Source: Clavelina lepadiformis | Lineage: Eukaryota > Chordata > Ascidiacea > Aplousobranchia > Clavelinidae | Reading direction: 5' to 3' | DNA length: 64,000 nt | Assembly: GCF_947623445.1 (NCBI RefSeq) | Contig: NC_135241.1 | Location: forward strand, 23,686,501 to 23,750,500 | Shown here: positions 30,850 to 52,774 of the stretch, one piece after another | How positions within the stretch are numbered: the stretch's first letter is position 1 | Layout of the letters: the number at the start of each line of letters is the position of its first letter | Position numbers and translations under genes: made by a program | Notes under the pieces: model-generated | What the model was told of the DNA's origin: nothing | Database searches by the model: none | Seen by the model: only the letters and a program-made list of their open reading frames with translations

Positions 30850-31443
30850 TCATCTACCAACAAAAATTGAAGTTACAGCAGTACTTAAATCTTGTCCAGC
30901 TTTATCGATCTTTTTTGTACGCTGCTGCTGATAATTAAGGTATCTACGATAATCTTCAACATCTGCTTCAAACTTTTCTTCTTCATCAACACTTTCTGCA
31001 GGAGACTTGCCTCGGAATTTTTGTATCATTGACGCTATCATGAACATTGTAAATACCAAACTTATCTTCAAGATATTTTTCACGTCAGTTCTTTCATAAG
31101 TTGTCGGTGGAGGATGGTTTTCTACTCCAAGCGGAGAAATGGTAAATGAGTATGGCATTCCCGATCTACTCCCATCATCTTGTTCTTCTTTCACTAAAGT
31201 CTCCATGATGGCACGATATGCATTTTGAATCTTTATAAATTTCTCTTTGGCCTCGGCATTGTCAGGATTTCTGTCAGGATGATATGTTTTAGCCAGTTTG
31301 ATGTAAGCATTTTTAATCGTTGACTCATCAGCGCTTCTACTGATGCCAAGTACGTCGTATGGGTCAAATGCATACCGACCACTGAATCTGTAACTACCAA
31401 AGATAATCCTTCGACATAAAAATTGTTTCCCGAATGACAGCAT
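30850..31443 (-). CDS. Mitochondrial-type DnaJ protein with one membrane span, intronless
   Basis: 197 aa in one exon. The open frame continues 15 codons upstream without an ATG, so Met at 31443 is the likely start; it gives a basic amphipathic N-terminus (MLSFGKQFLCRRIIFGSYRF) like a mitochondrial presequence. The J domain occupies about residues 26-85: DPYDVLGISRSADE, YIKLAKTYHPDRNP (His55-Pro-Asp57), FIKIQNAYRAI. A hydrophobic helix lies at about 124-141 (ILKISLVFTMFMIASMI), then an acidic/basic coiled segment ends FVGR. Architecture and the single exon suggest the DNAJC30/DNAJC4 type, but sequence outside the J domain is not diagnostic. Confidence 0.88.
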   Translation of the reverse strand: MLSFGKQFLCRRIIFGSYRFSGRYAFDPYDVLGISRSADESTIKNAYIKLAKTYHPDRNPDNAEAKEKFIKIQNAYRAIMETLVKEEQDDGSRSGMPYSFTISPLGVENHPPPTTYERTDVKNILKISLVFTMFMIASMIQKFRGKSPAESVDEEEKFEADVEDYRRYLNYQQQRTKKIDKAGQDLSTAVTSIFVGR

Positions 31444-32235
31444 CACCAAAACCTCCAAACTATCATTTGAACATATTGAAAATTTCACCCGCTTGAGGTT
31501 TTTGCTATAGCCTAGACTATAAGCTATGAACCTAGAGTGTATAAAATTGTATAGATTACATTTCCTAAGCTAACTTAGGCTACTTTTCACACATGTGTTT
31601 CACTATTATAGCACACCTTATAGCATAATATAATAAAAAAGAACTACACTCAAAAACAACCCATGAACAAGAGCACACTCGATATTTTGTGGCTGAAACA
31701 GTACTGCACACCTATACAAATCGACACTAAATTTTACTCTGATTTCTATTGTAAAAGGTTGCACCTTGTCTACCACAAACACCGGTCAGGTTTGGGCCAC
31801 GAGTCGAAGTGCAAATGGATTGCTTCCTCGCACACTGACAATTTTCTTCTGCACAGCCGAGATATCAGCAAAAACTACCATACTCTACATTCCAGGCAAG
31901 GAAGGCTCAAAACGTTCAAATGGTAACTATAATGCCCCAGAATACCAACCCAACACACTTGTGTGGTTAAGTTCAACAGGAGTAAAATACGCTTGGGAAA
32001 AATGTCTGAGTGTCTTAATGTGGATCCAACCTACAGACCTAAGGCCTACAAACACTTTAACAGTTGGGTTCAGCAGCAATGATAACCCTTATTCGTTTTT
32101 ATGAAGTGGGTTTTTCTATTCTTGCTCGTTTTAAGCCCATAGGTTTAGCTGCATTTTACCTCTGGTTGTTTGCTGACACGGTGGTTAACTTTATCACGCT
32201 AGGCCCCTTGTAAGGATGGTTCGCATTTTATTTTT

Positions 32236-32376: not shown

Positions 32377-32601
32377 TTATTTTTCGTTCCTCCACACCAC
32401 AGACAATGACAAAAAATAAGTTAAATGGTAAAAACAAAGGAAAAACCCATAAAAAAAAACTTGGCAAACCAAGCAAGAATAACTTCGATATGGTAGGCTG
32501 GATTCGATTTTCGGTGTGGTAAATTACGTTTGTCATTTTCCCATTACTAACAAGCGACAACAGAAAATTACTTGCAGCGTTTTCGGTCTGAAATCACCCG
32601 C

Positions 32602-32732
32602 TTCGTCAAGGATTAGCCCATAGGAAAGGGAAAAAAGAACGCACGGATTACCCATTCGTATGGGCTAAAAAGAATATTTCCATCTCTTAAAATAATTGTT
32701 GGAAGGTTAATCGTGTTGGAATGAGTAATCCA
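32602..32732. repeat. 131-bp repeat, member 1 (inverted pair with 52362-52492)
   Basis: Matches the reverse complement of 52362-52492 with two mismatches and no gaps; similarity stops abruptly at both ends. It contains an internal inverted TTAGCCCATA/TATGGGCTAA pair. Probably a non-autonomous mobile element. No target duplication identified. Confidence 0.8.
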
Positions 32733-35700
32733 ACCGAGCGATAGGTCGAATAAGTAATCCAGTCGAACTGCTGTGGCTGGTCATCGTACGGTACGATCCA
32801 AGCAAGTTCTAAAGACTGCTTAATTGTTGCACAGTGCAATGCACAATGGTGTTTGAACTGGCAATCCAGCCAACGATAGACCGGTACTCTAGTAGCCAAA
32901 AGTCACTTTTTCGGGTTTGCAGTGCTCATGCAATGTATTAAATTGAATTTTGGTAATTGCATGGTGCTTTTATTCAGCATCAGGTTGAAATAGTTTTGCA
33001 TTCAAGCTGGTGTGATTGCATCAATTATATACAGGTGGCATACCACTGCTGTGGCATAAGGTCAAAGCGTTTCACAGCAATCAACATGGTTTTCTTTATT
33101 TGGCGGCTAGGATAGAAGTATAACTTCATATGTCATTTTAGTTCGCTTCCATTAACCTTTGTGGTAATCTTTAATTGCTCCAGCCCCACTTATCTGGCTA
33201 GCTCTTAAGCAAGTTCGGAATGATACACATATGTTTTTTATTGCTTGAATTTAGGTATGTTTATCAGAAGCACTGAACTGGAGCAAGCATTGGTAATACC
33301 CCAAGGGCATAACAATGGTAGTGCTACTGGGTAGTGAACACTGCCTAATTGCCAGCTCTAACCATTCGGCTACAAAGCTGGCTACTACTCAACATTGCTG
33401 CTTTCTTACATAACGAGCTTGCAGAGTACAGTGATCTTGTGTGATTGTCAGAGAACTTCGAAATCCTGAGTGGAGTGAATGAACAACTTAACATTGTAGT
33501 ATTTCAAAAAGGAAATCCATCTGATATGCAGATCATAAGCAAAAGGCAATCATTTAATTTGTCTTGACTTTCGATAAACGAAGGTTTCAATCGTTCTCAA
33601 AGAGTGCTATTTGTCGATTATATGCATTCATGAGTTTGCAGATTATTACAAATTAAAAATGATAATAAACGGCCTCTAGAAAATAAATGTCTTGTGTAAA
33701 AATATCCCTGTTTTACCATCAGCCTGCTTCCTCTGAGCAAGATGTTATTTGGCAACACAAACTAGATGTTTGAGCTTGAGTCAAGTAACAACTGGGTAAT
33801 GCTGCCATCCAAAAATTGATGACTATGTATTCCATGGGGAACATGGGGATACAATAGCTGGATATGTTGTAATCTTTATTTTGCAATCTTCTTTGTGCTA
33901 CGTTCACAAGTTACACTGTTTGCCATTCCCTATTTTTACAGGGTTGAACAGAAACAACCATCTCCAGATAGCAGGCAATTAAGTCCCCCACGCCATCCTT
34001 AGCAGTGTAGAGCCAGTGAGCAATGGGTATCTTGATTTTATTTATCCGGCTTGCTTTTTTGCTGAGGCAAATAGTTTTGGGAGGAGCAATCAGAGTGGCT
34101 CCGATTCATAATGTGCAAGGTAAAGAGTGACTCTATCGCACTGAAGCCCAGCAGGTTCAATGCTCACAAAAACAGAAAAATTGTCATGCTGTGGGGTTCT
34201 ATAGGTCTACATCCAGTCACAGGACGCTGTTTACTATAACAGTGTAGATTTGGTGCCCAATGCCCGTTAGTCATTTTTTGACCAAAGATTTAAATTTTCT
34301 GCAAGGTGTCACAAGGTGAGCTGTTGATGTTAGCTTTAAGCTCACGTTTTGCTACCTTGGTGTTAGGGTAAATGGATGCTAACACTCATTGGTAGCTTTA
34401 TTCTCCAATTTTGGATATATGCATTGGCCAAGGGTCAGCTCACTGTTTCCCAATTTTTGGCCGAGTACCCGATCTCTTGGTGGGTCGTTATTTAAGTTCA
34501 CTCACCACTTGGCTCAACTGTGATGGGTAATTAATTATAAATTATTTATCTCCATTCATTAAGAACAATTAGTCTATTGGCAAAGATGCTGTCATTATCA
34601 CAGTCATGTGTCATGAGGCAAGGTCCATATCTGCTGGGGACTCGCTCAGCATACATAACTTGCTCTGTTGACATTGTTTGCGCTTACTCAGTCATGTGAG
34701 TCACAGCAAGAATGCTGATATACTTCAAGACCTTCTATGGTAAACAAGCCACTAAGCGATACTGTGTAGTTCGTACCGCACTACACATCAGGGATGTTTT
34801 CAAACGTACCCAAAAAGGACAGGCATCAACGCAGACATCTGGGAAGTGCTTGTTGATATGCAGATCATGCTGTTAGTAGTGGCATCAAGTGAGATTAGGA
34901 GAAAATAATTTAAAGAGAAACAACAAAACATAGTGACCAACCAGCAGTCAGAGTAAGTCAGAGCACACGCTGTGGCAAAAACTGCTGTCCGAGAATTTTT
35001 CTGCTAATCGATGTAAGATGCTGCGCTTAGCGAAATTGATTACTTTTGAATGTGCTTCATTGCTTTTTAACTTAAGACAAAAGAAGGTTTTGTTAGATTA
35101 TGCAGAGTTTTTTTGATGGTAATAATTATTGTCAACAGTAAAATATTTTGATTTGATTTCGTATTTTAAATTCTTAAATTAAAACTATTTAAATTTTTTA
35201 ATTTGTTTGGAATGCAACATTATCCACCACCAAACATTGTTTGCCAGCTGAAATCTTCTGTTTGATGCACATTGTGAATGACTGAAACTTGGTTATTTTG
35301 GGAGAAACTTCACTTGGAAGTAAATACATAATGCATGAAGTTGTTTAATTTGGAAACGTTTTTTCATGTGTACCCCTTTACTGACCTTTGTTGTTGTTGT
35401 TGTACCAACTTTACCCTAGTTTGGGACCATGAAATTCTGAAGCCTGTCTTGACTTTTTTATTATCTGTTTTACATATTCTTGTAATTATTTCAAAATATA
35501 CCACTACCTCCGACTAAAAAGTGTCAGTAAGATTTGTTCTACCTTTCCAAGAGAATGTTTAGAGTTATTACTGAAATGTGTACTTTGGCTCTAGTGCTCT
35601 TGATTTGAATCTTAGTCCATGCGAAAGCAACCATCTCAAGTGGCTGCCATCAAAATTACGACAAATAATAGGTTGTTGTTGTCTAAACGATTGCTTTTCT

Positions 35701-36677
35701 GCGAGGATTGAAAACAGCACTTCATTTTGGTGTAATGTTTTCAAAATAAAACTCAATTTCTTCCTGAAGCCACCTACTTTGTATGCTTTTCAGACCAAAC
35801 ATTTCAATTAAGAAAGTTACGATTAGCAAAGTTTTTGAAGGGCACCGGTTACTACAATATATATGATATAATGGATTTTAGTTAAAACATCCTCTTAAAA
35901 GTGCTTGTAAACAACTTGCCACCTCTTAAAAGCCATCCACTTTGAACAGTAATGCTGGCAATTTATTCTCAACTGCATTTAAGAATGGCCTATTTAAACA
36001 AAAATCTGGTCAAAGAAGTTGTGCAGATAAATGGCTATTTACTCCGAAAAACAATCGCTTATTACAAACAAATATCAAGTAAATTGATTTGGAACATTTG
36101 TCATTTCATGTCACAGCTACTATCGCTTATATTTTTACATTTTTATAGCATCAATGCCCATAACTTGGTTTTGCTGAGACAGACAATGACCTCACAGATT
36201 AAGTGTTTAATTCACATCAAAGTATGTGCATATAAGCTATTAGCCTAAAGAACATTGTGATATTGTAATACTATAGTGCTGTAGGAAAAGACTTACGTGT
36301 ACCATATACATAAAAGGGTTGGCCAAACTTCTTGATAATCTTTGAAGCCTTTATGATTTGAAAAGGAGTTGCAGTTGGAACATGGCGCTTACTGTTGATT
36401 ACCAAGCACCAAGAAAATCATATCTGTGCACAGTAAATTTTTGACATCTGTAAGACTTTAGTGTTGAGCGTTTGCTTTTAATGCAACATGTGCCCTAAGT
36501 TATATTATTTATTAGGACAACTATCTTTATGTGTGTATGTTCTATTCTTAATTCATATTGAGTGGTGATTACTTCTTACAAAACTAATTTTTATCCAAAC
36601 AGTTTAGTTTATTGCATGTTTTAATTTTTGTAAAATTGTTAAAATTTTGTCGTACTATTTGCTCTTTTCTGAGTAAC
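32733..36677. other. Long gene-free stretch
   Basis: About 3.9 kb with no ORF or splice-linked frame that I can recognise. One tRNA box-A-like motif on the minus strand (33374-33364) hints at a SINE relic. The right end should contain the promoter and 5' UTR of the gene starting at 36678. Confidence 0.4.
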
Positions 36678-39600
36678 ATGGCAAGCACTAGAAGATCTCG
36701 GTTAGTTCTTCATGTATAATAGCTAACTTATATGTATATATCTGTTGTATATTTAATTCGATCTTTGGTCATAAATAAGTAAATGTTAGTAATAGTATGG
36801 CATTTTTTTCATGTCACTCTGTTTATTTGCATGCAAGTCACTAAAAGTGTTAATAAAACGCTATTCTGAATTGCCGTCCAGATGGACGTAAGATATTTCG
36901 TGTAGATACAGACAAGCTGTGTTTTCAATTTAAAAAAAAAAATTTTTGTGTCTCACTTATTAATGATTTGATTTGCATTGTTCAGTAAGGACATTTCACA
37001 AAGCCAGCGGGATATGCTTATATCTTTGTGGGAAACAAAAGGTATGAGAACTGCAAAGTCAGAGCACCTCAATGAAGCAACCATTAATACTGGTTTAAGT
37101 AAAAACCAAATCAAGGTTATTCATCGTAGATTAAAGTTTTATTTGCCATAATTCATACTTGCTATAGTTATCAGCTCTTTCAGTATTACCGCAAGCTGTA
37201 GAACTGCACTCCCTGCTTTACAAACAAGTTACAGTTCATTACTGTAACTCTATGCTGTAATTTCCGCATGAAGTAGGCTATTATGATAGAACTCTGGTTG
37301 AAAGATGCCATTACGTACTTTAAGTTCAAAGATTGCAACAGTTGTCTTCGCCAAAATAATCTTGTTGGCTGACAAAAAGCTCTGTTCCTTGTCCGGGACA
37401 ACTCTCCAACTTAAAGTAGTTATTGCATGTTTATTGCATGATCTTACAAAATGATTAAAGTTTGTCCCTTTCTCAGATCTCTTGTATGATGGTATGTTAA
37501 ACTGCCACTACTAAATACTTTTGCCGCTTGTTTACTAGCGTTTTGACAACTGCTGTGTTTTAGCGCTGGATTTACAATTACAATGCATCAATAAGGCGAA
37601 GGGTTCAAAAAGTTAAACCTTTTCGAAAACGAAGAATCACAGGCTACAATCTATTTTGTTCTTCCATTAAGAAACAGAATATTGGTATTTTTAATACAGT
37701 TGCATGATTTCTTCCCAAATTTTCAAGGGAGAAGCTTCTAGACAGCATCACATGTGTTTCATTTAAGATATGTACAAGGTCTGATATTCTGGCTGGTTTG
37801 CTTAATTGATCGCTTGCTTCATTGAGTCATTAGCATTATGTCGTTAAATGCACAAATGTAGTTCTCACTGAAAATAATTTTCATTGTTTTTCACCCGATA
37901 AATTGCATTCATTGATTTCATGCTTACTGTGTTCGTTACTAAATTTGCATGTCGTAATTTTTTTTTCTCGGTTTGATTGTGAAACTTGTGTCACAGTGTT
38001 AGTTGGATTAGTGAAGAGCATGATACATAATGAATGATGCATGACTTGAAGTGCATGCTATTTGTGACCTCACATGATACGTGTGTAATGAATTTCCAAA
38101 AATGTGTTTACTGTTATGTTGGTTATTAGAAAGCCTTAGATATCGAAGATGTTAACATTGATTGACGCTGTTAAATCTTAAGAGGTGTAAGCTTCTACTC
38201 AACTTCAAAATTTACATAAATGAAGGTTTCACTATGTTAACAGCTGAACAATGAAAGTACTAGTTTAGACAAGTTATCAAAGTGTTTTGCATGAAGTAAG
38301 GTCTTGCCTGTTTTCAGTGTTCCTTACTTTCAATTTATGTTCATTTTTTTATAAAGCTTTCAAATGTTCTGTACTAATTTTTAATTGCTGTTTTTCAAGA
38401 TTTCAAACTCTGGGGTAGCAGGTGGAGAGAACTTCCGAAGCAAACGAAACAAGTTTGGAAAGAGAAAGCAAAGACCTTCAATTCTGAAAGTTCCATACCA
38501 CCAACTGAAATGGATGGAAATATGAAAAAAAAACTTAGACAAAATGCAATTGCTCGAATAATTCAAGCTGTATGTTGCTGTTCATATTATACTATGGTGT
38601 AACCGTGCTGTACACGAAACAAAGGTAACTTGTTCCTGTTTTAGTGTGGTGAACTTGAAGAAATTGGTGTGGCGGTTGGTGGAATGGCATTTGTTAACGA
38701 TACATTCAATGCATTTGGAAGCAGGGATGTAAGGCCATATTTCTTGGAGCCAAGTGTTCAAAGTGGCTTTATTGAGATTTTACATGGCGGAAAAGGTAAT
38801 TTTATGTAATTTACTGTGATATTTCTAAACATTTGTAAGAACATGATTAACTACAGTTACATTTACTGCAAGCATATATTAAAAGGAACTTTTATAGCAC
38901 TTATTTTTTAACTTTAACTCATTGAAGATTTTTTTTGCATATGAACCTGAATGATATTAGTGTCATTATTAATCACGTTAATCATAAAGTATGAAAAAAT
39001 TTTCATTACAAGTAACGTATGCTATATATTTGTATACAGCTTGCAGTACTTCAAGACAAAAAAACACCGAATTGCAAATGAAAGTTCGAAAAATTTTTAA
39101 TAAGAAATATTGTAAGTCTTTTTATGACAACAAATTGTCTTTCTTTAGCCTAACGGTGTGAAATAAAAAATTTTATTATTAGTGTTGCGTATTTTTCCAA
39201 GCAATAGAATGTAATACAATAGAATTGATGCTAATTGTTTTATCTTAATTATATTAAGTTGTGTTTGTGCATGCCTTGGTATCTTTGCTCTGGTGCTTTA
39301 CAGGTGAGACAATGCACAAATCCAATGGACGTATGCCGTATGCTAAAATTAACGAGTTCAGCATCACTGGAATGCCTTGTGGAATCCCCTTTCGAAATCC
39401 TGGCAGTTATGGTCCAGTCGATTGCCAGAAAATTATAGATGAGCAAGAAAATATTATAATTATGAAAAGGGGGTAAGTGATGGGATTTCTGTAATCTTTG
39501 CATGCATAAAGGGATTACATTGCAAATTTTACGCATTGCGCTTTCTGTTATTCTTGTTGCTCTTTATAGCAATTTGGAGCTGGCAGAAAACAATTTAGTT

Positions 39601-39681
39601 CTTTTGGTGACAACGGAAGAATGTGAAAATGAGGAACATTTGCACTTTGCTGAACCAACACATAGAACAGTAGATTGGTAA
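36678..39681 (+). CDS. Homeodomain-like plus HMG-box-like protein, 315 aa, 8 exons, family unknown
   Basis: Exons: 36678-36700, 36986-37115, 37564-37684, 38400-38569, 38645-38795, 39040-39111, 39304-39472, 39570-39681 (TAA). All seven junctions are in phase. Residues about 8-66 read as a homeodomain-like fold: SQSQRDMLISLWETKGM, TGLSKNQIK, then RWIYNYNASIRRR at the recognition-helix position. A basic linker (KPFRKRR) leads to a short HMG-box-like region at about 76-119: GYNLFCSS, WGSRWRELPKQTKQVWKEKA, FN. The rest (about 120-315) contains LEEIGVAVGGMAFVNDT, PYAKINEFSITGMPCGIPF and a C-terminus ending THRTVDW; I do not recognise it. This suggests a nuclear DNA-binding protein. The multi-exon structure argues for a host gene or a long-domesticated element protein, not a recent insertion. 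Confidence 0.82.
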
Positions 39682-39725
39682 TTTGTTCGTGATTCAGTGT
39701 TATATGTATAACGAGTAAAAATTCC

Positions 39726-40000
39726 CGTATTATACGGAACATAAGGCGCACTTTAAATCCTTTTTTCTCCTCATAGATTGATCGTGCGCCTTATAAGCCG
39801 GTGCGCCTAATGTATGGATCATAATGCGTATGCGCATGCTCACAACGTATTTTAATGAGCTTTATACGGTAACACATGTGCCTTATAGCCATATGCCCTT
39901 ATAGTCCGATACGCCTTATGTATGAACAAAAAACTAATCAAAGCAATTTATTGACAATGCGCCTTATAGCCCGGTGCGCCTTATGGTCCGTAAAATACAG
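39726..40000. mobile_element. MITE with CATAAGGCGCAC termini
   Basis: About 275 bp with inverted ends: CCGTATTATACGGAACATAAGGCGCAC reads inward from the left (arm starting 39726), and the reverse complement of the right end reads TGTATTTTACGGACCATAAGG, then CGCAC. Several internal GCGCCTTATA units repeat the motif. No ORF. A TA or short duplication is possible but not clear. Confidence 0.7.
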
Positions 40001-41639
40001 TACATCATTTGGCAGTTTCGTTTTGGTAATGTTTGTTATTTTTACATTGCCGTACAACGGTGCAATGATTTCTTCTGACCAACCTATTGTGCTAATATAC
40101 TGTACAGTATATAATTATATCACACACGTATTGGTGAGCGGATAGTTACTTTTCGCTAATTTTCCTTATTTGTACAGTTAGATTTGTAGTGTGCCTCTTT
40201 TATAGTCTTTTATTATTAACGTAAGTTGCGATCATTCATTCCATTTTAGCACCTCATCCTTTATTTATGTCCGCATTTTCGTCATTGTATAAAGTTAACA
40301 TTCGTTAAAATTGTTTGTTGTTTTTTTACCTATTTCACCGTCTTCAATATTTTCATAATTTTGCTTTTCACTTTTTGACTGCGCTTTCGGAAAATATACT
40401 GTGCTGAATCAAAGCATTTTTAGTGATAATGACTCACTGCTGTATTTTGGTACATTGATTTTCTATTAAGGCTTAATTTAACATTAACGTTTAACTTAAT
40501 TTAACAAAATTCCATAGTAATATGGGGGTTCAATATCACTTTTCGTGACACTTTCACTAAAAAGTAGTTGCAATATGTGCAAAACTTTGATATGTAGCCT
40601 AAACGAGTCAAACTTGTAAACGATTACGTTAAAAGTCAATGAAGTGACGAATACAAATGGACGTAACATGATAAGAGGTTTCTTTGATAAGTTGGTCGCA
40701 TGCTAATTTTGATGTGGCCACATTAAAAACAGAAGATCGTGATGTAAACTTCAAAATGTTACTCACACCTTTTTAGGAAGGTTAAATTAACCACTTTAAA
40801 AAGGACGCAACCTAACAATGAAAATTCTATGCAATATAAGTTGAAAGCTCTTATCTCTTATTGACGTGTTGGTCGAACACATTTCATCGTAATAATCTCT
40901 TCTGTCGTATGATATGATATTATGACCTGATATTATTGAAGAGGTAGGCGAGCTCAATCGCTGCAAGGCTATAAAATTCAAGTTTGTCATAAATATCTCC
41001 AACAATATCATGTCGGAATTTAAAATGCTTATTAACACTCAACATGTGTTTATAAAAGTAGCCTATAACCCTTTTGTTGTATGACATTTTGATCCTCTTT
41101 CTGGTTCACATGGTAAAACAAGATCAATAAAACGCATTTTTAGATCTTTTTGCCGGTTTTGCCAACTATTAAAATTATGAATAAGTTTAACGAAAAGAAA
41201 ATTTTCTCAAATGGTTAGTTTTTTTTTATTAAATCTGTATTTTAATAAAATATCAAAAGAGAAACCTTGGCAAGACTTACAACCTACTGTTATTATTTAT
41301 TGCATCGCTTCAGCAATTATAACTTTAAAACTTAGTGACACACCACATCACGTCCTTTACCGCCGTTCTTTTCTCTTGACGCTCTTTTCTCTTCTCTTGC
41401 AGAGACCCAATCCCAAGAAGCTAGCGCTGTGGACAGATCTATAAGCTCAATACTATCAATACTGCTCACAGTGTCTTGAACAATTTCGCTGGCCGGTCAG
41501 CTTAGTCAATACGCCCGCGCTTTTTCTCATCCAACACATTCGCCACGCAACTGACTGAATGCGGAATACACGAAAAGAGGGACCAAACTTGTTGGAAAAG
41601 AAGTGTCTGACCTTTAGAGGTTAGAAACCCCTGATGGCG
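40001..41639. other. Intergenic, AT-rich
   Basis: No coding frame recognised. The right part leads into decayed LINE sequence. Confidence 0.4.
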
Positions 41640-42340
41640 AAAACATCTCTGGCCATTTCTCTCCAAATGACTTCGCTGCTGTGCTCTATCAAACAAAGCC
41701 AAGCAAGGTTCTGGGTCACAAAATTTCAAGAGCTTTTATCATCGTGATTTAGGGCCCGAAGATTTGTTGCCCCTATCTCTTTTGTGTGTCCTCTTGAAAG
41801 TCCGCAAACGCTTGGTCTACCCCTGCGTCGAAACCATAATCGACAACTTCTCCCCTGGTTGAATTCCAGGTCACCCGTATGACCCAGAACATCGCGAAAA
41901 GCTTCGGGATTAACAAAAAGGCTGGTGCTGCACTTCATAAACTTACAGCTGCCTATGATACAGTATGGCACCGAAGCTTTGCCTACAAGCCGCTGCGTCT
42001 ACTCCCAGACGAAACAGGTACATAATCCGTATAACCATGGAGCTAGTTTACAAACGGAGCTTTACCTTCACCCCAGGTCACAATAAACGAAACAAGCTAT
42101 GACGCCTTAAAGACGGGATCCCACAAGGATCGATGGCACTCCTTCTTAAACATCTACGCGCTCTTCTGTCCAGTCCCCAAATAAGTCGGAATAACAGTTC
42201 GCTCACGTTTTGTCGAACTCGAACAGTTGGCTCACGTTTTGTCGACAACTTGAGTCACTACGCAAGAAACGAATATCCCGGATCGCCTTGAAAAGACAAA
42301 TGATAGCTTTTGCTCGGGCACTAGGCTGCTACTCTCCGTA
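41640..42340 (+). mobile_element. Decayed LINE reverse-transcriptase segment
   Basis: Across shifting frames on the + strand it reads LTAAYDTVWH (about 41940-41972; the conserved D-x-A-Y/F-D-x-V region of reverse transcriptase), then an ELVYKRSFTFTPG-like stretch and LKDGIPQGS (about 42100-42135; the GxPQGS motif). Order and wording match Jockey/CR1-type elements. Several frame changes and in-frame stops separate the motifs, so it is not functional. The YADD box was not found. Confidence 0.7.
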
Positions 42341-42503
42341 AAAAAGCTATGGTTTTATCGTTTTTGTTTATTAAGCGCTCTTAAACGATTAAGGCACACT
42401 TAATAATAAAAATTAAAAAAAATCTGCTCGTGTAAATGTCGGAAAGAAAAAAACACGGGTTTTTATCGGAGGAAAAAACACACACAAAACACATCTATAA
42501 TCT

Positions 42504-43448
42504 TTAATTTACAGTTGCATTAAGGTCTGCTGGATTGGGTTCGTAGGTGTGTTCACATTTTTCGCATTGGAATGATTTAAATCTGTTATTGATACGTATT
42601 ATCGAGAAGTTTGTACAAGTACATCTAATAAAGGCTGTTGTACAACGTTCACAGTAGATCGGTTGATGGAAATTCGGAGTTGTTTTCCGTGAGCTCTTGT
42701 TTCTTCGGATTCTAATAAGCTGTCCGCATGAGCAAGGGATCAAGCGTGATAGGTTAGGTGGTATCGAGGAAGCATCGTGTGGAATTTGTTCGTCCATAAA
42801 TCCTGGTTCTTCTTGTTGTTGTTGTTCATCCGATTCTCCGCTTATGTTTTTTCTCTTGTTTCCTCGGCTCTCGCTGTGTTCTCGCTCCGAGGATCCCTCA
42901 TAGGAGTCGGGCTCCCGGCTATTTTCTTGTGGATTCTCTGTTGTGGGTCGACTCTTTTTTGCATCCTTGGCACTCTCTCGTTCTGTTCCTCGTCGCAGTT
43001 CTTTTGTTTCGGCAGCAGCATGGTCCACTGTGCTACTTTTGTTGGGGGGTGTTGCTGGTTTTTCATCGTCTGGATCTATAGCCCGCGTAGGTGTTTTCGG
43101 AAGTTCCTGTTTAGTCGTGTTGTCGGTACTTGGTTGTATCCTGTTGGGGCATTCTTTGAATTTGTGGCCCTGTTCAGTGCAGTAAGAACATGTTGAGATT
43201 TGCCCGTTGTAACTTACCGCACATCTCAGTTTTCCCAGGTATAGGTACGATGGGTGTTGGTGCCGCTCCATCGTCTTCTTGTTGACTTTGTATATCCTTC
43301 TTCGGTCTTTGATGCCATATTTGTCGACACCCAGTCGGGCTGGGGCTTGGATTTCGAATTCTTTGAGGATTTCGTCGAGGTCTTTCCACGTTTTAGGTCG
43401 ACGTGCATTGCTCCTTTTTGCAATCATCGTACTCTTCCTTTCCGACAA
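42504..43448 (-). mobile_element. LINE ORF1-type zinc-knuckle protein, 5'-truncated
   Basis: An open frame of 314 codons with no ATG at its 5' end (a stop lies immediately upstream; first Met about 7 codons in). It contains HQHPSYLYLGKLRCAVSYNG then a CCHC knuckle CSYCTEQGHKFKEC, a long hydrophilic Glu/Ser/Arg/Gln-rich linker and a second Cys-rich segment (CSCGQL, YCERCTTAFIRCTC, QCEKCEHTY). This is the nucleic-acid-binding ORF1 layout of non-LTR elements. It runs opposite to the reverse-transcriptase remnant at 41640, so the two are separate insertions. It sits 188 bp beyond the KDZ stop codon. Confidence 0.72.
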
Positions 43449-43636
43449 TTAAAGGCGAAATATTTGATAGACTGCCTACTGCCTAGGAAACGTGTCTGAG
43501 GCAAAACAAACATATGGCAAGTATATATGTAATGAACGTTTAATAACTGAAATGCGTACAAAAAATGGAAACAAATGCAGTTGAACGTAATTTTGTGGCA
43601 TAACTGACTCAAGGACACGGGTTAAAACTAATTAGT

Positions 43637-46600
43637 TTAAGCTTCATCTTCGTTATCTGAACCTTCGCTTTCCGAGCCAAATTCAGTTAAAATGTGTTGA
43701 AGCTCAGATAAATTTATTGGTGATTCACTTTCATCATCTTCTTTCTCCATTGGGTCCAATTTTGCCATATTGGAAGTGCCTAGCTTCTCATTGAGCAGAG
43801 GTGTATTCGCTTGAAAAGGTACTGTGCCCTTAATGTCATTTATGAAAGAAAGAAGTTCGATCTCTGCTTGCAACTGATGGGTAACCACATATGGTTCCAC
43901 AACCTCACAGCCTTCTACAAGATTAGACAGTATGTTTATTTGCTTTTGATAGAAGTTCATCACACTTGTCATATCTTCTTTTAAATGACACATTTCTTCT
44001 TTGCACCTTTCCCGAATGCAATGTTGTTCCTTGATTTTTTTTTCAATAAAACCAGGTACGTTTTTAACTGGCCCAGACCCGACAACCATTTCAAAAGTTA
44101 TGCTTTTCATTTCATTTTGTGGAACATTCTGGTATTTATTATACATAGTAATCTGATGACGAATGTTGTTGTTAACCTTCCTGATGCTTCGCACTAGTCG
44201 TTGAACAATTGTTTGACCAGCTGAAAAATCATCATGTACAAACTTGAAAATAACAGAACAGTAGCTTTATCGATAATGTAACCCCATGCATAGTGCATGC
44301 ACAAATTACCTGGGTATTTTTGAATCAAAGTAGATAAAAATTTTCTTTCGATATTTAATTTATAAATGTTCTCCAAAATTTCTGCTCTTTTTTTCTTCAC
44401 AGCACTTGACAAATATTTAAGCATCATATCATCTTTTACATCCCAACGAATCAATATACCGTTTTCTACTTCAACTTTGGAAAGATGACTGTCAAGTCTA
44501 CAAAACAATGCATACAATATGTAAAATAGAAGAACATGCAATACATCGATGAAGAAAGCATATATCATGTCCTGGCAAACAATACTCTTGGCAATTGAAC
44601 TCCCATATACTGTATTTTCACCATCATTGTGTGGGTTTTAACTTTATCACAGTAAATTTGGTGGATACACTGTTGTTACTGTTTTATAAGCTTTTCTAAG
44701 GGTTTCTGATGTTGCAGCAGTGGGAAGTAACAATATTCGTTTATGTCTGGGGAATTATTGTAGTAACTCAATTTAACATTGATATGTCCTTCAGCTTACT
44801 TAGCAATTTGGTCAACTTTTCCAGAAAGTATTTCAGACGTTATTTCCTTGGTCAAATCTTCAACTTCTTCTCTACAAATTAACAAAATTATATAGTTTCC
44901 TATACAATTATACAAAATTCTATTCCTAAAGGATTCAGTACTTAAATTTGTATGTTCAACAGTTTCGCAATTTTCACTTTTGCAATACAACCCACAAACA
45001 GTAACTAGCGTGAATTTTATACACCACAAAATTGTATTGAAAAATGTATCATTCAGAAAACATTTAGTCAACTCACTTCAACCAATAGTATTCTTGAAGT
45101 TTAAGTGAGTATTCTTCTACCCAAGAAAAAGATGCCATTTCTGCAGAAGAATACGGCTCTGGTTGCAGAGCTATTGCTTTTAATTGATGTTGTGTTAATG
45201 TTCCTGTAAGGTTTATTGTATAATGTTATACTCTCATTTCTGAAAATAAATAACATGGAATATAATAATTCAAATATATGATACAAATACAAATATACAA
45301 AGACACATAATCATACATACCACCAGGGTAAGAAGCTGCCATAGCTTCTAATTCACTCTTGGCCAATTCCATTTTGCAGCTAGCTCTCTTCAGCTTGTTC
45401 ATCAATGCACAACCTTTGAAACAGAGCTTAAAGCTTGTCATATTTGTTTTAGTTATTTAGTGCATGTTTGAAAGCTGAAGAAAAAGAAAACCTAAATCAT
45501 GCAAGTTTACTTAATTGCGTGAAGATATCTTAAGTCAATCTGGACCAAATCACAAACAAGGCTTACCCAAATTTTTTTTGATTTTGCGCCCATAATGAAT
45601 CAAGCCATCGGTAAGCAAATCAGTACGATGTTCCGGTTTCATCTCTTTTGAGATTTTGTTAAATCCACGAAGGTATGCCCATAATCGCTCCACAGTTTCA
45701 CCATCCGTAAGTCCAAACCCGTCCAGGAACCTCGGGTTGAATTGTTTCTAAATTTTAAACAGAACAAAAAAACTGAGAGATAACTATCTCATTACACTTG
45801 AATACATCATTATATAAAGATTTTGTCATACAGACAACAAGTTTTTCAAAATTAGACCTTGATATTTTCGCTGAATTTCTTGTGCTCAGTGTAATAAAAC
45901 TAAAAGACTTTGACCTAACAGTTGTACAATATATAGGTATAAAATATCATGTTTACCTGACAAGAGAAAATATGGCCATATGAATGAAAAACAGGTACTG
46001 CAAATGTTATTTTATTAAGAATTGCAAAGTTTTTTCGGACCTAAATAATAAAATCATATTGGAATTCAGAAAGAAAATCACAAAATCTTAATTATTATTT
46101 AAACATAAATGCAGTATTTTATGTAAGCAAAAATGATTAACTAACTTGCACATACAGCATCGTCTGCAGTATGCACTAACATTAAGAACACTAATGACAT
46201 GCAATCAATGACCCAGGAGTAGATTGCTTACAAATAAAATATGTTTCAAAAAATGGGTTGTATACCTATAATTTAAACGTATATCAATGTTGCCATACTA
46301 ACACAATATCATGTGTAAATTCTTAAAGGTATACCTGAAGATGACCTTTCAGTTTGCAAGCTATGTCATAGAAAACTCTTATTTTATTTTCGTTTCTTTC
46401 CAGAAGTTTTTCAATAGCTAAAACTGCATATGCTAGCCTGCAACAGAATCAGTTTTAAAAACATTGTTTACAATTACTAATACACAAATTCTACATATAC
46501 CGTAGTAATACACCTTCCACAAAACAACTAAAGCAAGAATGTACACTTTACCTTTCACCATGTTTTAAGTCAAAAAACATTGTCGGAAACTCATGTTTAC

Positions 46601-49600
46601 AACAAACACCAAATACACCTTTGATAGCCAGTTTACTGCTTTTAGATTTCGATCTAATGATGCTGCCTGCTTGAAAGTCATTGCAATTTTTGGACTAAAA
46701 ATAATGATTCTAATTAATGCATAAGTATGCAGCATTTATTCTTATAAATACGCATTAAATTCCTTGAAATGTATAATAGGACCATAACAATATGATTGGA
46801 AATCAATTGTTGAAGTTATGTACTTGATTTAATATTTTTAATGCATTTTGGTACATACTGTTAAGAAATAACTTACAGCCGAGCCATATTTGTTTTCATC
46901 ATAGGTGTCTACAAAGCTGTCGACTTCATTTTGGTTTAAAAAAAAAGATTGTTTGTGGTGAGGATCACAGCTTTTACTCCCAGACAAAATTCTTCTCACC
47001 AAACCAAAATTTGCATCTAAGCAATATGTCCGCATACCTTCAGGATTCTACCAACAAAACGCAGTTAAAGCCAAGCATTTACACTCGATCAAAGAGGCCT
47101 GGGAACTTTCAATCACACTTCTTAGCTTTACCCCTTCACATGCTGGACACAGGGTACCCGTATCTATATCATCAGAAGAGACCAAACCATGCAGATGTTG
47201 CAGCTTATAGACATGGTGTCTATATGCCTCAACCACTTCTTGTAGCAAAACTCTTGACAAAGACTTTACCTAAAACAAAAAAAAACAAGAAACATCCACA
47301 GGTTGTTTCGGATTTTCTTAGAAATACAAAACACTAAAAAGTGCTAACCCCTGCTGTATATCCAGGTACTCGCAAAAATCTATTTTCAAGAGCATGGCAA
47401 AATCCTTCAGTGGAAAGATGTTTTTCGAGACACAAGGCTCGAAAGTATTCCAATAGGTCAATGGATACTGCTAGTTTAGGCTTTTTGGGCGAACAGGTCC
47501 ACAGATTTAATCTTAACAGAGTTTCAGGCTCACTCTCACAATAGCAAAATTGTACAGAAACCACATTTTCAAAACCTAAAATGCAAACTTTGCCAATGAA
47601 CAAGAAAACAATGGATGAAAGAATGGCAGAGATGATTTATAATAAATGCAAAGGAATAAAAAAAATTATACCTTTGTAATCAACCACTGTAAGGTGTCGA
47701 GTGTAACTTGACTGACATTCATGACCATCAAATCTCTTCAAAAGTCGTACCGGAGTGACCATTTTGCAAAACATGTTACCCTGTAAAGTGTAAATAATAC
47801 CATTAACAATGTGTTACAAGTAATATGTTGACTAAAATTGCAAGAGGGTGTTTGGATATTTTAACTAAGTGATATTGGTACATACACAAGAAATACAGGA
47901 ATAGTTCTGTAAAAAAACTAAGTCTGTTTTAATCAACGATTTTAACAGGGGTAGAAGCTTACCGCTTAATTTTGTTTTCCTATGTGGTCAAATACCACAA
48001 CAACACATTTTTTTGGTTTCGTGTAACATAGCTTCTACACTGAAATATTTAGGCTGTCTCAAAAAGCAATCATTTACAACCTTATCTTACTCCAACTGTC
48101 TTCTGTGATACATTGTGAGCAGAAGCAGCTAAACTTTAACGAAGAACTGCAAAACGTTTTCCCTAAATATATGCTTAACTTAAAATCTCCTTCACCACTT
48201 TAATTCTATAATTTCATCATGCCTGGATGCTTCACTTTGTTGCACAGAATTTTTTGTTCCAGATTTGTCTGAATAACTGCCTATCATTGATATAATTGAT
48301 GACATTGAGCGATTTGAAACAACTTACAGCTAAAAAAAGAACAAGCACAAACATCATTCTCCAGCTACCAGTCTTGCTATTACTGATGTGGCAGAGACCT
48401 GGAGATGTTTGAGCATTTAAAAAAGTGTTATTAGTAAGTAGTAGTGGTATAATGGAAGGGCTCTGAAAAATGTGTTGGAGGGGAATCTTTTGAAGGCCAT
48501 GAAATAAAATGTGTCATACATATGGCACCAGTATTGTCTTTTACTTTTTATACTTCAGATACATTTTTGACACATTTTGTATTTCTCAGCTGTGAAAATG
48601 TTTTCAACAATATTGTAAACAGAGATCTAAGTTCAACATTATTCGATACATTCCGGTAAAAATGTAGGAATAATTGCAAAGATACTTCGTTTACAGTATT
48701 AACCCAAACAGTTTTTACATTCTACTGCACAAAAAGCAACTATGACATTGTTGTCTAGACCAGTTTAAAGAAATGTAAGCTACTGTTTCTTTTCCTCTAA
48801 TATTCTGCCAGTGACCACTTTTTCTTGTGGTAATTAATTAAAGGTATGATAAATTATTTTATGTAGACGAATGTATTTAACTTATTATATATATACATTT
48901 GAAATAATTATTGTTGATTATCAACAGACAAATTAATAAACATTTCTTAAGACTGCCTACAGCACTAAAATGTTTACAAACATTAATGGCCTTTTATATC
49001 CAGATAAATGAGTGGTCTTTTTGTGAATAACCTTTACAAAAATAAAGATATTTGTATATAATTATTATTTACCATCCATATGTCTGGCAAATGATACCAA
49101 ACAAAAGAATGACAGTTATCCCAGCACTGACGACAGTAATATACATTTGGCCCACAATCTCCACAACGAATTATGTTGGCAACTTCTTCAAAGCATACAC
49201 AGCAAGTACGTCGCTCAGGAGAATAGAGGGTTATGGACAACTTAAACAACCTTTCTTCAACTAATCGCCAATCTGAAGACAGCTTCTCTCTTCTGATTTT
49301 GTAATTTAAATTTTCTTCCAACTCTGTGATAACATGAAAATTAAAATGCAGTATTCAATATGACTGTTAAGTGATTATTTTCAGAAAAAATGTAGCATAA
49401 AAATGTGAAATATATTGTAAATCTCCTTATATTATTTCTTTCATTCACCTCCACAAGAACTGTTAACATTACTAGTGCTTGGTATTTCAGGATTTGTAGC
49501 AGTTAGATCACCTTCCACAGAACCTCTTGTAACTATGTGACTGTTTGCATTGGGTTTCAACGCTGGACCAAATGTTTTGCCAAAGAGGTAAACGGGTCGT

Positions 49601-49653
49601 TTTCTTTTTTTGGGTTCTTTTACCCAATATCGAAACTTAGCTTTTGTAATTCC
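43637..49653 (-). CDS. KDZ (Kyakuja-Dileera-Zisupton) transposase gene, 14 coding exons recognised
   Basis: Exons in coding order: 49653-49449, 49323-49073, 47780-47672, 47575-47370, 47269-47132, 47047-46877, 46694-46552, 46437-46335, 45747-45567, 45413-45321, 45203-45077, 44871-44800, 44497-44310, 44220-43637. All joints are in phase, giving 856 codons in frame. Exon 2 has the Cys cluster CCVCFEEV, CGDCGPNVYYC, CWDNCH (CxC2-like, KDZ-associated). Then RLLKRFDGHEC, LTVVDYKG, FCYCESEPETLLRLNLW, LCPACEG, LDANFGLVRR, GVFGVCCKHEF, FYDIACKLKGH, DGFGLTDGETVERLWAYLRGF, EHRTDLLTDGLIHYGRK. Asp in DANF, Asp in YDIAC and Glu in GETVERLW fit the proposed D-D-E catalytic residues. An acidic tail ends DNEDEA. 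The 5' end is unresolved: the exon at 49653 needs a phase-0 partner, and the frame at 49985-49884 (containing MFTANGN) does not join it simply. No terminal repeats were found. Confidence 0.87.
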
Positions 49654-52361
49654 CTATGCAATGGAAAAGATATATCAATATATTGATTACTCTAACCACT
49701 ATTATTGCTGCCCCATGTAGAAAAAATAACAGGACTACCCTGATTTAGATTAACAAATTCTTGGTATTAACGCTTGAGATTGGTATGAAAAGAAACTAAT
49801 TACTATCTTATTAGCTATCCCATTTAAACAGACGTTAGATAAAAAACGTAAAAAACATAGTAAAATATAGTAAACGTACTTACTCCTTTTATTTTTCCCA
49901 TTTCTTGACACGTAGGTCAAGTTTCCATTTGCAGTAAACATACAGGCAAATTCTTGTGCTATAGATATTTTTGTCTAACAATAACAACAATAAATTCAAT
50001 CCTACAAAGAGGGAGGGGTTATGTAAGAGTATGCAATATTCATTTCAAAGTTAGATCACTACTAACTCAGTTAGATTTTGTAGTGTAATTTGAATCAGCT
50101 GGGAAGCCTATATCTGAAAATAAAGCTAAAAGGAATACATTCAAATGTATATATAAAATATACTGCATATGATTGCACAAAAGTTGAGAATAACTGGTCT
50201 CAATAGCTGTCTCAGTTAAGAAAAAATTATGATCCTATGTCATGATTCATAATTTACAATACAGTGTTGCAGATTATAATTATTATTTAATGTAACTATA
50301 TTAGCGACTTTTTCAAGTACTGTATGTATAAATTACCAAACTTACCGGTGATACGAATAAACAAGGCATTAACATGGAGGTACATACCATAGTGTAGTCT
50401 ATTGTTTATGATACCTGCATACCATGGCAGCGACTTGCTTGCCCAGACAATTTGATATGATATATGCCACAAACATAAGGTATACATATCTCAGCAATAT
50501 ATTTAATACTTGAAAGTTCTTATCAGTGAGATGTGAGTCATCCACATCTTTTTGGGTCTGTTTAGCCAGTGGCAGTAGCCTACAATATATACTCATAAAC
50601 AAGAAAACGTTTTCGTGCAAATAATTTTTGTTCATAAAAGGATTGCATAGGTTAGTAATAGCCCATTGGTTAAGATCTGCTCATGTAGACCAACAATATA
50701 TAATAAAAATTGAGTAAAATTCTATCTGCTTATGAAGTAAGTAACATGGAATTCTAACATTTTAAATTAAATTTAAGCAATTTAAAGTAAGTTAAGTCTT
50801 GCACCACACTTTCTACTACGGTAACCAGCAAATATTTACAAGGTTCATTTCATTACAATTGGGTACACAGGGCCTGGAGAATGAACTATGCAAGACTCAC
50901 AGGAGCTCAACCTGCTGACCCATGATGCTTAATCTAGCCCTTGAAATCCTGTAACGGTAACAAAAGTCTGTATGATGTGTGGAAGACCTTGATTTTCAAA
51001 CAGTCAGTACTTATAAATTAGCTCCTGCACAAAATGCCAGCTCAAAGATGTAGCAGTTAAAGCACCTGGCTCAGCTTGCTACCGCTCGTAGTTAGCTATT
51101 TCAAATTCACTATACAGTTTCAAATTCGAGAAATACAATATAAAAAATTCAAATAAAAAAGTTGAAACTTAGACAAAAACAAGTTCAGTTACTAAACTCT
51201 AGTCACGCTGCGCAAAGATAAAGGTTGTGATTCTGTAACGAAAAAGTTGATTATTCTGTCTAACGCTGTAACCGTTAAGTTGAAAAATTCCAATGCATGC
51301 AATCAATGTTATATTCACAACTACCCAACTGTGAACCGTAAATACTGAGAAGCAAACCTTCCACGTGACAGACTAGCCAAACTGCCATTTTTCATATTTG
51401 TATTTTCTTACTTCGGCTACTGGCACCTAGTGAAATAAGTGTCTATTTCAAGACCCAAGTAGACTGGCAAAATACAAATAGCGTAAGCTGCAACCGACTA
51501 GGCATGTACAGTTGTAGTTTTTTTCTGAATTTAGAATCTGACCACACTGAAATCATTGCACCTTTCAACGAGATCTTAGAAGTGCAAGATGGCTGAAACT
51601 AGAATGACTAGGTGGAGGATGAGTAGGGGTGGGGTGGGGTACACTTTGCAATTTGGTTGGCAAAATCTAGAAACTGTAGCCTGTGTTTGCAAGAGGTAGT
51701 GTTTACATGTGAAATATTCGGGTGCAGCAAGCATAGTCTTTAAAAACCTTGATTGTGTAGTTGCCACGCATTCCACAATGGGTATAACTGGCAGTCGGTG
51801 AGATAGATGTCACCCAAATTGCAAAGTTAGGCACGAAAGCACCCAATATTGTTTTTCATAAACGTTAATGTCGCATATTGGGCTTGACAGCTTTCGGTGA
51901 ATTTTCATACTTAATGATGTGGAAAAAAACTCCAAACTCAATTACTCAGCAGTTCGGGATGCTTACCACCACTAGCTGACAATCATTTACAAACATATTT
52001 AATATTCTACTGAAGTGTGTTTCAAAGTTAGTTATAGGGCATATAGGCCTTCTTGCAAACATTTTAGTGTGTCGGTGCAGTACTGGAATACTGGTAGCCT
52101 GCACTATACGGCCTACACTATATACCTATATAATCTGTAGGCATAAGTCATTTCATTACAAAGGACATTATGTAGGCTATAGGCCAATACAGGGTCCTGT
52201 ATTTCAACTACCGCCAATTGTTTTAGGCCTATGTAGGCCAAGCACCCTAGCTTATATGCGGGATGACACTATTTATTACACTGTAGATGCAATGAAGTCA
52301 CTGTAAATTCACGTATGCTGTCTGTTTTCTACACAGCTACCAGCAATGTGACGTGCCCAAA
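49654..52361. other. Region 5' of the KDZ transposase gene
   Basis: Probably contains missing 5' exons of the KDZ gene. Candidate minus-strand frames are 49985-49884 and about 50580-50510 (CHWLNRPKKMWMTH), but phases do not link unambiguously. Nothing else recognised. Confidence 0.35.
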
Positions 52362-52492
52362 TGGATTACTCATTCCAACACGATTAGCCTTCCAACAATT
52401 ATTTTAAGAGATGGAAATATTCTTTTTAGCCCATACGAATGGGTAATCCGTGCGTTCTTTTTTCCCTTTCCTATGAGCTAATCCTTGACGAA
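52362..52492. repeat. 131-bp repeat, member 2 (inverted relative to 32602-32732)
   Basis: Reverse-complement partner of 32602-32732 with two substitutions in 131 positions. The sharp limits (TGGATTACTC at one end, TTGACGAA at the other) suggest whole units of a mobile repeat family. Confidence 0.8.
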
Positions 52493-52774
52493 TGGGGTGC
52501 TGAAATTCATCAGAAAAATACCTATTGCTATCAGCTGTATCGAGTGCACGTCACAAGATGTCGCCACAGCGTGAAAAAAGCAACAATGGTTCCATTATTG
52601 CAACATAACTACACAACACAAACGAGTGCTTTATGACGTAAGAATTATTACAATAATAAAGAGTATTTTAAGTTTTAAAAATATCTTTGGTGTCCAAGAA
52701 ACAGAGGTCCAGATAGACTGATAATTTAAAAAAATATTAGGTCCAAGTGAAAAGAAAAGAGGTGATTAACTTAC

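What the first reader, a model, noticed from the sequence alone, without database searches (positions are those of the whole stretch)
43637..49653. Frame-intact, 14-exon KDZ transposase gene with catalytic triad motifs
Seen: 14 exons join in phase over 6 kb with no stop, and the DANF, YDIAC and GE..ERLW motifs plus the CxC2-type zinc cluster are present. Known: KDZ transposases (Kyakuja, Dileera, Zisupton) are described mainly from fungi, algae and fish. Inference: the open frame across so many introns means either a recently active element or a domesticated host gene.
Basis: partly seen in the sequence, partly recalled or inferred. Interest (0 to 1): 0.8.

Follow-up and report, generated by a model that had tools for sequence, protein, structure and literature searches.

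The report
Active sea-squirt transposon with TFII-I-like partner
The stretch is the transposase gene of a complete, very recently moving 20,000-base DNA transposon in a sea squirt, and the same transposon carries a second gene with a protein domain best known from the human transcription factor TFII-I, which is the part worth following up.

Summary
It is not domesticated. It lies in a complete DNA transposon, window 32595-52499, with 138-bp inverted repeats and 7-bp target duplications, perfect in 15 of 16 copies read at both ends. Five copies on other chromosomes show no difference over the transposase sequence compared, so movement was very recent. Contig lengths fit the sea squirt Clavelina lepadiformis. 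It holds one GTF2I repeat (8.3e-9), the domain of TFII-I, behind weak homeodomain-like and HMG-like parts. A diverged KDZ family in the same genome has the same kind of partner (5.3e-9 for a protein joined from two copies). Of 28 KDZ loci, 24 have a partner match within 12 kb, all convergent; these are two families, not 24 events. No library paper holds both GTF2I and KDZ. Splicing, the partner's role and any link to the origin of vertebrate TFII-I are untested.

The parts
32595..52499 (.). complete KDZ DNA transposon, 19,905 bp
   Evidence: 15 of 17 matching pieces elsewhere begin exactly at 52499; inverted repeats; other end and flanks
32595..32732 (+). left terminal inverted repeat, 138 bp, starts CACCCGCTTCGTC
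   Evidence: 97% complementary to 52362-52499
52362..52499 (-). right terminal inverted repeat, 138 bp, ends GGGGTG
   Evidence: 40 matches in the genome, 40 of 143 candidates scored
32588..32594 (+). target site duplication CTGAAAT, left copy
52500..52506 (+). target site duplication CTGAAAT, right copy
43637..49901 (-). KDZ transposase gene, 16 exons, 897 aa: 49901-49884, 49653-49449, 49323-49073, 47780-47672, 47575-47349, 47269-47132, 47047-46877, 46694-46552, 46437-46335, 46040-45957, 45747-45567, 45413-45321, 45203-45077, 44871-44800 (start uncertain), 44497-44310, 44220-43637
   Evidence: model; Pfam KDZ 2.8e-45, CxC2 4.4e-12; homology to a second family over most of it
36678..39681 (+). 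partner gene, 8 exons, 315 aa: 36678-36700, 36986-37115, 37564-37684, 38400-38569, 38645-38795, 39040-39111, 39304-39472, 39570-39681; homeodomain-like, HMG-like, then one GTF2I repeat
   Evidence: model; Pfam GTF2I 8.3e-9; PDB TFII-I repeats
39040..39472 (+). two exons (39040-39111, 39304-39472) that encode the GTF2I-like repeat (residues 210-274 of the model)
42504..43448 (-). 314-aa zinc-knuckle frame nested in the element, most likely from an inserted LINE ORF1; not counted as the transposon's own machinery
   Evidence: 136 matches in the genome, many in frames of about 360-460 aa outside the element; region replaced by other DNA in another subfamily. LINE label is inference

Best explanation
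SHOWN by sequence: two convergent genes between 138-bp inverted repeats, 7-bp target duplications, many near-identical copies. INFERRED mechanism: the spliced 897-aa transposase, with a D-D-E core (DANF, YDIAC, GE..ERLW; catalytic role recalled from the family) and a CxC zinc cluster in front of it, pairs and cuts the CACCC/GGGTG ends and makes staggered cuts 7 bp apart at the target. INFERRED for the second gene: its 315-aa product, with homeodomain-like, HMG-like and GTF2I modules, is an accessory DNA-binding factor that recognises the element's ends (perhaps the GGATTA motifs clustered in the terminal 200 bp) and helps assembly, or links the element to host transcription or chromatin.
For: KDZ 2.8e-45, CxC2 4.4e-12. 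Inverted repeats. 7-bp duplication in 15 of 16 copies with both ends read. Copies: 17 pieces at 99-100% to the 10-kb query, 15 of 185 candidates scored; 40 end matches, 40 of 143 candidates scored. L009-L013 show 0 differences from the window over the transposase sequence compared: whole gene for L009-L012, 87% of the coding part and all introns for L013. Partner genes of both families pass the GTF2I cut-off, 36.1 and 36.7 bits against 27. 8 of 8 PDB matches of the window's partner up to E 5 are TFII-I family repeats. A partner match lies within 12 kb of 24 of 28 KDZ loci, convergent in 24 of 24. GGATTA: 4 in the left and 3 in the right 200 bp against 0.43 per kb outside the element.
Against: No transcript or protein evidence for either gene. 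One of 16 copies (C8:7635779-7655683) has no matching duplication. 4 of 28 KDZ loci have no partner match within 12 kb and 11 of 35 partner loci have no KDZ match. Homeodomain and HMG matches are below Pfam's cut-offs: homeodomain 21.3 bits against 22.9 in family 2, no match in the window's copy; HMG box 16.0 and 16.5 against 25.4, with an unrelated glycosyltransferase model scoring nearly as well (15.6) on the window's piece. Exon constraint in the partner is not visible inside the family: against L026, 14 of 948 exon sites differ and 28 of 2050 intron sites, dN/dS 0.29 on 13 changes; all three other copies compared (L026, L027, L028) carry premature stops. Stops also occur in the transposase of L014 and L018-L021. 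The GGATTA motif was picked after looking and the two ends share ancestry. An AlphaFold model of the single GTF2I exon was poor (mean pLDDT 47.9).
Confidence: 0.85

Rival explanations
1. The transposase is a domesticated host gene kept for a host function.
For: Long intact frame with 16 exons.
Against: Inverted repeats, 7-bp duplications in 15 of 16 copies, copies without a difference over the transposase sequence on other chromosomes.
Confidence: 0.02
2. The second gene is a host gene fragment carried as chance cargo, with no role in transposition.
For: Within the family its exons diverge as fast as its introns in the one comparison made, and three of three other copies compared carry stops.
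Against: The same order of parts, an intron at the same place in the homeodomain-like part (read by eye) and the same convergent orientation recur in a family whose partner protein is only 36% identical.
Confidence: 0.12
3. The elements captured the GTF2I repeat from a host TFII-I-type gene, so the direction was host to transposon.
For: TFII-I repeats are best known from vertebrate host genes (recalled); capture of host pieces is known, e.g. TET/JBP genes in fungal KDZ elements (passages of PMC12730594).
Against: The genome-wide GTF2I search listed 5 matches, all 5 at partner-gene positions, 4 of 5 within 6.3 kb of a KDZ match. Weak, because that search reads exon by exon and did not list the window's own repeat, so a host gene with split repeats is not excluded.
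Confidence: 0.25

Closest known systems
Kyakuja (KDZ), as described from fungi by Kojima 2025, PMC12730594 (outline and passages seen)
   Same: KDZ transposase, 7-bp target duplications, CA..TG ends
   Different: the fungal elements are said to have no inverted repeats, here 138 bp; those carry a TET/JBP gene, here a GTF2I-type gene; tree position not tested
Zisupton (KDZ) of fish and nematodes
   Same: multi-exon KDZ transposase with inverted repeats (passages of PMC9297572)
   Different: 8-bp duplications (passage of PMC12730594) against 7 bp here; fish Zisupton has a CxC7 cluster (passage of PMC12062965), here CxC2 matches best and CxC7 is not listed
TFII-I family (GTF2I, GTF2IRD1)
   Same: the partner holds one GTF2I repeat, Pfam positions 1-70 of 75
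   Different: one repeat instead of an array (array recalled); homeodomain-like and HMG-like parts in front; lies in a transposon
GTF2IRD2 / Charlie8 (hAT) fusion
   Same: a TFII-I-repeat gene tied to a transposon (passages of PMC10641963)
   Different: there a hAT element at the 3' end of a mammalian host gene; here a separate gene inside a KDZ element

Membership tests
KDZ transposase | match to the KDZ catalytic profile | tested here: met
   PF18758 155.1 bits, E 2.8e-45, cut-off 26.6
KDZ transposase | associated CxC cysteine cluster | tested here: met
   CxC2 46.6 bits, cut-off 27
KDZ transposase | mobile element with ends and target duplication | tested here: met
Kyakuja | 7-bp target duplication and CA..TG ends | tested here: met
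   15 of 16 copies for the duplication; ends CACCC..GGGTG
Kyakuja | no terminal inverted repeats, as reported for fungal families | tested here: not met
   138-bp inverted repeats; so it is not filed as Kyakuja
Kyakuja | place in the KDZ transposase tree | not testable with these tools
   no labelled eukaryotic reference proteins in the collections
Zisupton | 8-bp target duplication | tested here: not met
   7 bp
domesticated host gene | no mobile ends, immobile | tested here: not met
GTF2I-like repeat (partner gene) | match to the repeat profile over its cut-off | tested here: met
   36.1 bits for the window's protein, 36.7 for a family-2 protein joined from two copies, cut-off 27
TFII-I protein family (partner gene) | several repeats in a row (recalled) | tested here: not met
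   one matched stretch in each protein
homeodomain (partner gene) | match to the homeodomain profile over its cut-off | tested here: inconclusive
   21.3 bits against 22.9 in family 2; none in the window copy; two homeodomain chains among insignificant PDB profile hits, E 0.36 and 0.76 (that the second is a homeodomain is recalled)
HMG box (partner gene) | match to the HMG-box profile over its cut-off | tested here: inconclusive
   16.0 and 16.5 bits against 25.4, at the same place in both families

The most novel reading that the evidence does not exclude
The GTF2I repeat is an old component of a two-gene KDZ transposon system, and the vertebrate TFII-I family, which includes Williams-syndrome genes, arose when an early chordate domesticated such a partner gene.
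Probability: 0.3. Interest if true: 0.85.

Novelty: new variant of a known kind. Interest (0 to 1): 0.6.

Why it matters
It is an animal KDZ element with both ends, target duplications and near-identical copies, so it is a tractable, recently active example of the group. The recurring partner with a TFII-I repeat gives a concrete, testable lead on where a transcription-factor domain best known from vertebrates (recalled) came from: scan KDZ elements of lancelets, other tunicates and other phyla for the same partner and place the vertebrate repeats in that tree.

Tried and rejected
Domesticated gene: rejected. A blind exon chain gave false middle exons. A chain guided by peptide hints that I read from the frames (960 aa) still held a doubtful exon, 48462-48328, and a long exon 14. 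The first was dropped because the second family has its neighbouring exons close together without it. For exon 14 three acceptors keep the frame; 44871 was chosen by eye and the second family has no match there, so it stays open. The first partner model lacked exon 39040-39111 and had false pieces; corrected. That exon was chosen because it continues the GTF2I match, which favours the 8.3e-9; it has fitting splice sites and phase, the protein without it scored 6.8e-5 (23.6 bits, below the cut-off of 27), and family 2 has a like piece. The 314-aa zinc-knuckle frame was considered as cargo; 136 genome matches make a nested LINE ORF1 likelier. A tunicate test by GH6 found nothing and its controls rang nowhere, so it says nothing; host identity rests on contig lengths. 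Viral contigs: no relative of the partner. AlphaFold of one exon: poor, not used.
Full report
What was checked. The frame is there. A splice-consistent model runs from an ATG at 49901 to a stop at 43637 in 16 exons, 897 codons. Pfam gives KDZ at 2.8e-45, CxC2 at 4.4e-12 and CxC1 at 7.1e-9. Another KDZ family of the same genome aligns to the model piece by piece at 28 to 73% identity. The pieces cover most of residues 108-574 and 639-882, and 8-44 in one locus (L059); residues 45-107 and 575-638 had no match.

The element. A 10-kb query around the gene matched 17 pieces elsewhere at 99-100% (15 of 185 candidates scored), 15 of them beginning at one fixed point, window 52499. The last 138 bases before that point are an inverted copy of 32595-32732. 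The element is therefore 32595-52499, 19,905 bp. The window copy is flanked by CTGAAAT on both sides. For 15 other copies both flanks were read, 16 in all; 15 of 16 have a perfect 7-bp duplication, the exception being C8:7635779-7655683. A further copy, C1:12402063, shares its left flank with C1:12430478; its other end was not read and it is not counted. The end search gave 40 matches, 40 of 143 candidates scored, so copy number is a lower bound. The delimited copies run from 19,879 to 22,546 bp (positions).

Age. Against the window, L009 to L012 have no difference over the whole transposase gene (2,694 coding and 3,571 intron bases), and L013 none over all introns and the 87% of the coding part held. 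L014 to L017 have 1 to 4 coding changes over that 87%, one of them a stop in L014. The loci L018 to L025 differ at about 0.3 to 0.7% of coding and 0.8 to 0.9% of intron sites, dN/dS 0.17 to 0.48 on 5 to 18 changes, with a stop in 4 of these 8 loci; L022 to L025 are pieces of two copies. Movement was very recent; constraint on the transposase is suggested but rests on few changes.

The second gene. On the plus strand, facing the transposase, eight exons between 36678 and 39681 join to 315 codons. The protein matches the Pfam GTF2I-like repeat at 8.3e-9, 36.1 bits against a cut-off of 27, positions 1-70 of 75. One of its exons was chosen because it continues this match; without it the score was 23.6 bits, E 6.8e-5. 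All 8 PDB matches up to E 5 are TFII-I or GTF2IRD1 repeats, best 5.9e-6. In front lie an HMG-like and a homeodomain-like stretch, below the curated cut-offs. A second family, read in L058 (C2), L060 (C3) and L073 (C8), shows the same order, with an intron at the same place in the homeodomain-like part (by eye); its search protein, joined from two copies, is 36% identical to the window's and matches GTF2I at 5.3e-9. With a profile of the two, 10 of 14 PDB matches up to E 5 are TFII-I family; of the other 4, two are homeodomain chains aligned to the N-terminus but at E 0.36 and 0.76, and two are unrelated. Of 28 KDZ loci merged from the 31 matches, 24 have a partner match within 12 kb, all 24 convergent; 4 do not (C1:12408824, C1:25506424, C6:16970393, C7:2628120). 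Of 35 partner loci, 11 have no KDZ match nearby; two of these 11 are the C3 copies that have lost the matched transposase exon. By similarity of the partner rows, 20 of the 24 belong to the window's family and 4 to the second, so the independent evidence is two families.

GTF2I elsewhere in the genome. PF02946 gave 5 matches, all over the cut-off, all at partner positions, 4 of 5 within 6.3 kb of a KDZ match. The search reads exon by exon and did not list the window's own repeat, so host genes with split repeats could have been missed.

Host. Seven contig lengths (28.78, 26.53, 25.73, 25.07, 20.77, 20.45, 19.51 Mb) match chromosomes 1-4 and 6-8 of Clavelina lepadiformis (28.79, 26.54, 25.74, 25.07, 20.77, 20.45, 19.51 Mb) within about 0.01 Mb (Table 2 of PMC10884593, passage seen). 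This is inference from lengths; the species was guessed from recall and then checked.

How it works. Shown: ends, duplications, two genes, recent copies. Inferred from the KDZ family: a D-D-E transposase that cuts at the ends and inserts with a 7-base stagger. Inferred and less certain: the partner as an accessory end-binding or host-contact factor. GGATTA occurs 4 times in the left and 3 times in the right 200 bases, against 0.43 per kb outside the element; that TAATCC is a known homeodomain site is recalled, and the motif was chosen after looking.

What is known. Passages of Kojima 2025 (PMC12730594): Zisupton and a Dileera family make 8-bp duplications; two fungal Kyakuja families make 7-bp duplications with CA..TG ends and no inverted repeats. 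The present element shares duplication length and ends with Kyakuja but has long inverted repeats, so it is filed only as KDZ. Passages of PMC9297572 show multi-exon Zisupton genes in nematodes with lancelet relatives, so a many-exon frame is ordinary for the group. Passages of PMC10641963 concern hAT elements misread as GTF2IRD2, a different link. Library searches: GTF2I with KDZ, 0 papers; homeodomain, HMG and KDZ transposase, 0 papers; KDZ, transposon and ascidian, 0 papers. The library lacks most subscription journals, and I did not see the original KDZ papers, so this does not prove that the partner is unreported.

Verdict. The transposase belongs to a well-supported, recently active KDZ element, which by itself is ordinary. 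The surprise is the recurring TFII-I-repeat partner, which makes the origin of a transcription-factor domain testable.

Noticed in passing
window 42504-43448 (-), with 41500-42357: A LINE ORF1-like zinc-knuckle frame (314 aa) with RT-like remnants beside it (RT label by eye, recalled), nested in the window's subfamily; another subfamily has different DNA of about 906 bp in place of 42358-43373.
   Followed up: partly
C8:7635779-7655683 (L014, L030): The only delimited copy of 16 without a matching 7-bp duplication; its transposase also carries a premature stop.
   Followed up: no
L022/L024 (C3:15.13-15.15 Mb) and L023/L025 (C3:9.23-9.25 Mb): Two copies about 6 Mb apart, with different target duplications, share the same internal loss of 44962-45803, so a copy lacking transposase exons seems to have moved, presumably helped in trans.
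   Followed up: partly
C8:13636872, C8:13934343, C3:168605, C1:28119749: A third, degenerate-looking lineage: partner exons at 53-69% identity, one exon with two TGA; element ends at 95% identity lie about 5 kb from three of these four.
   Followed up: no
window 30850-31569 (-): A DnaJ-domain frame (2e-19) about 1 kb from the left end of the insertion.
   Followed up: no
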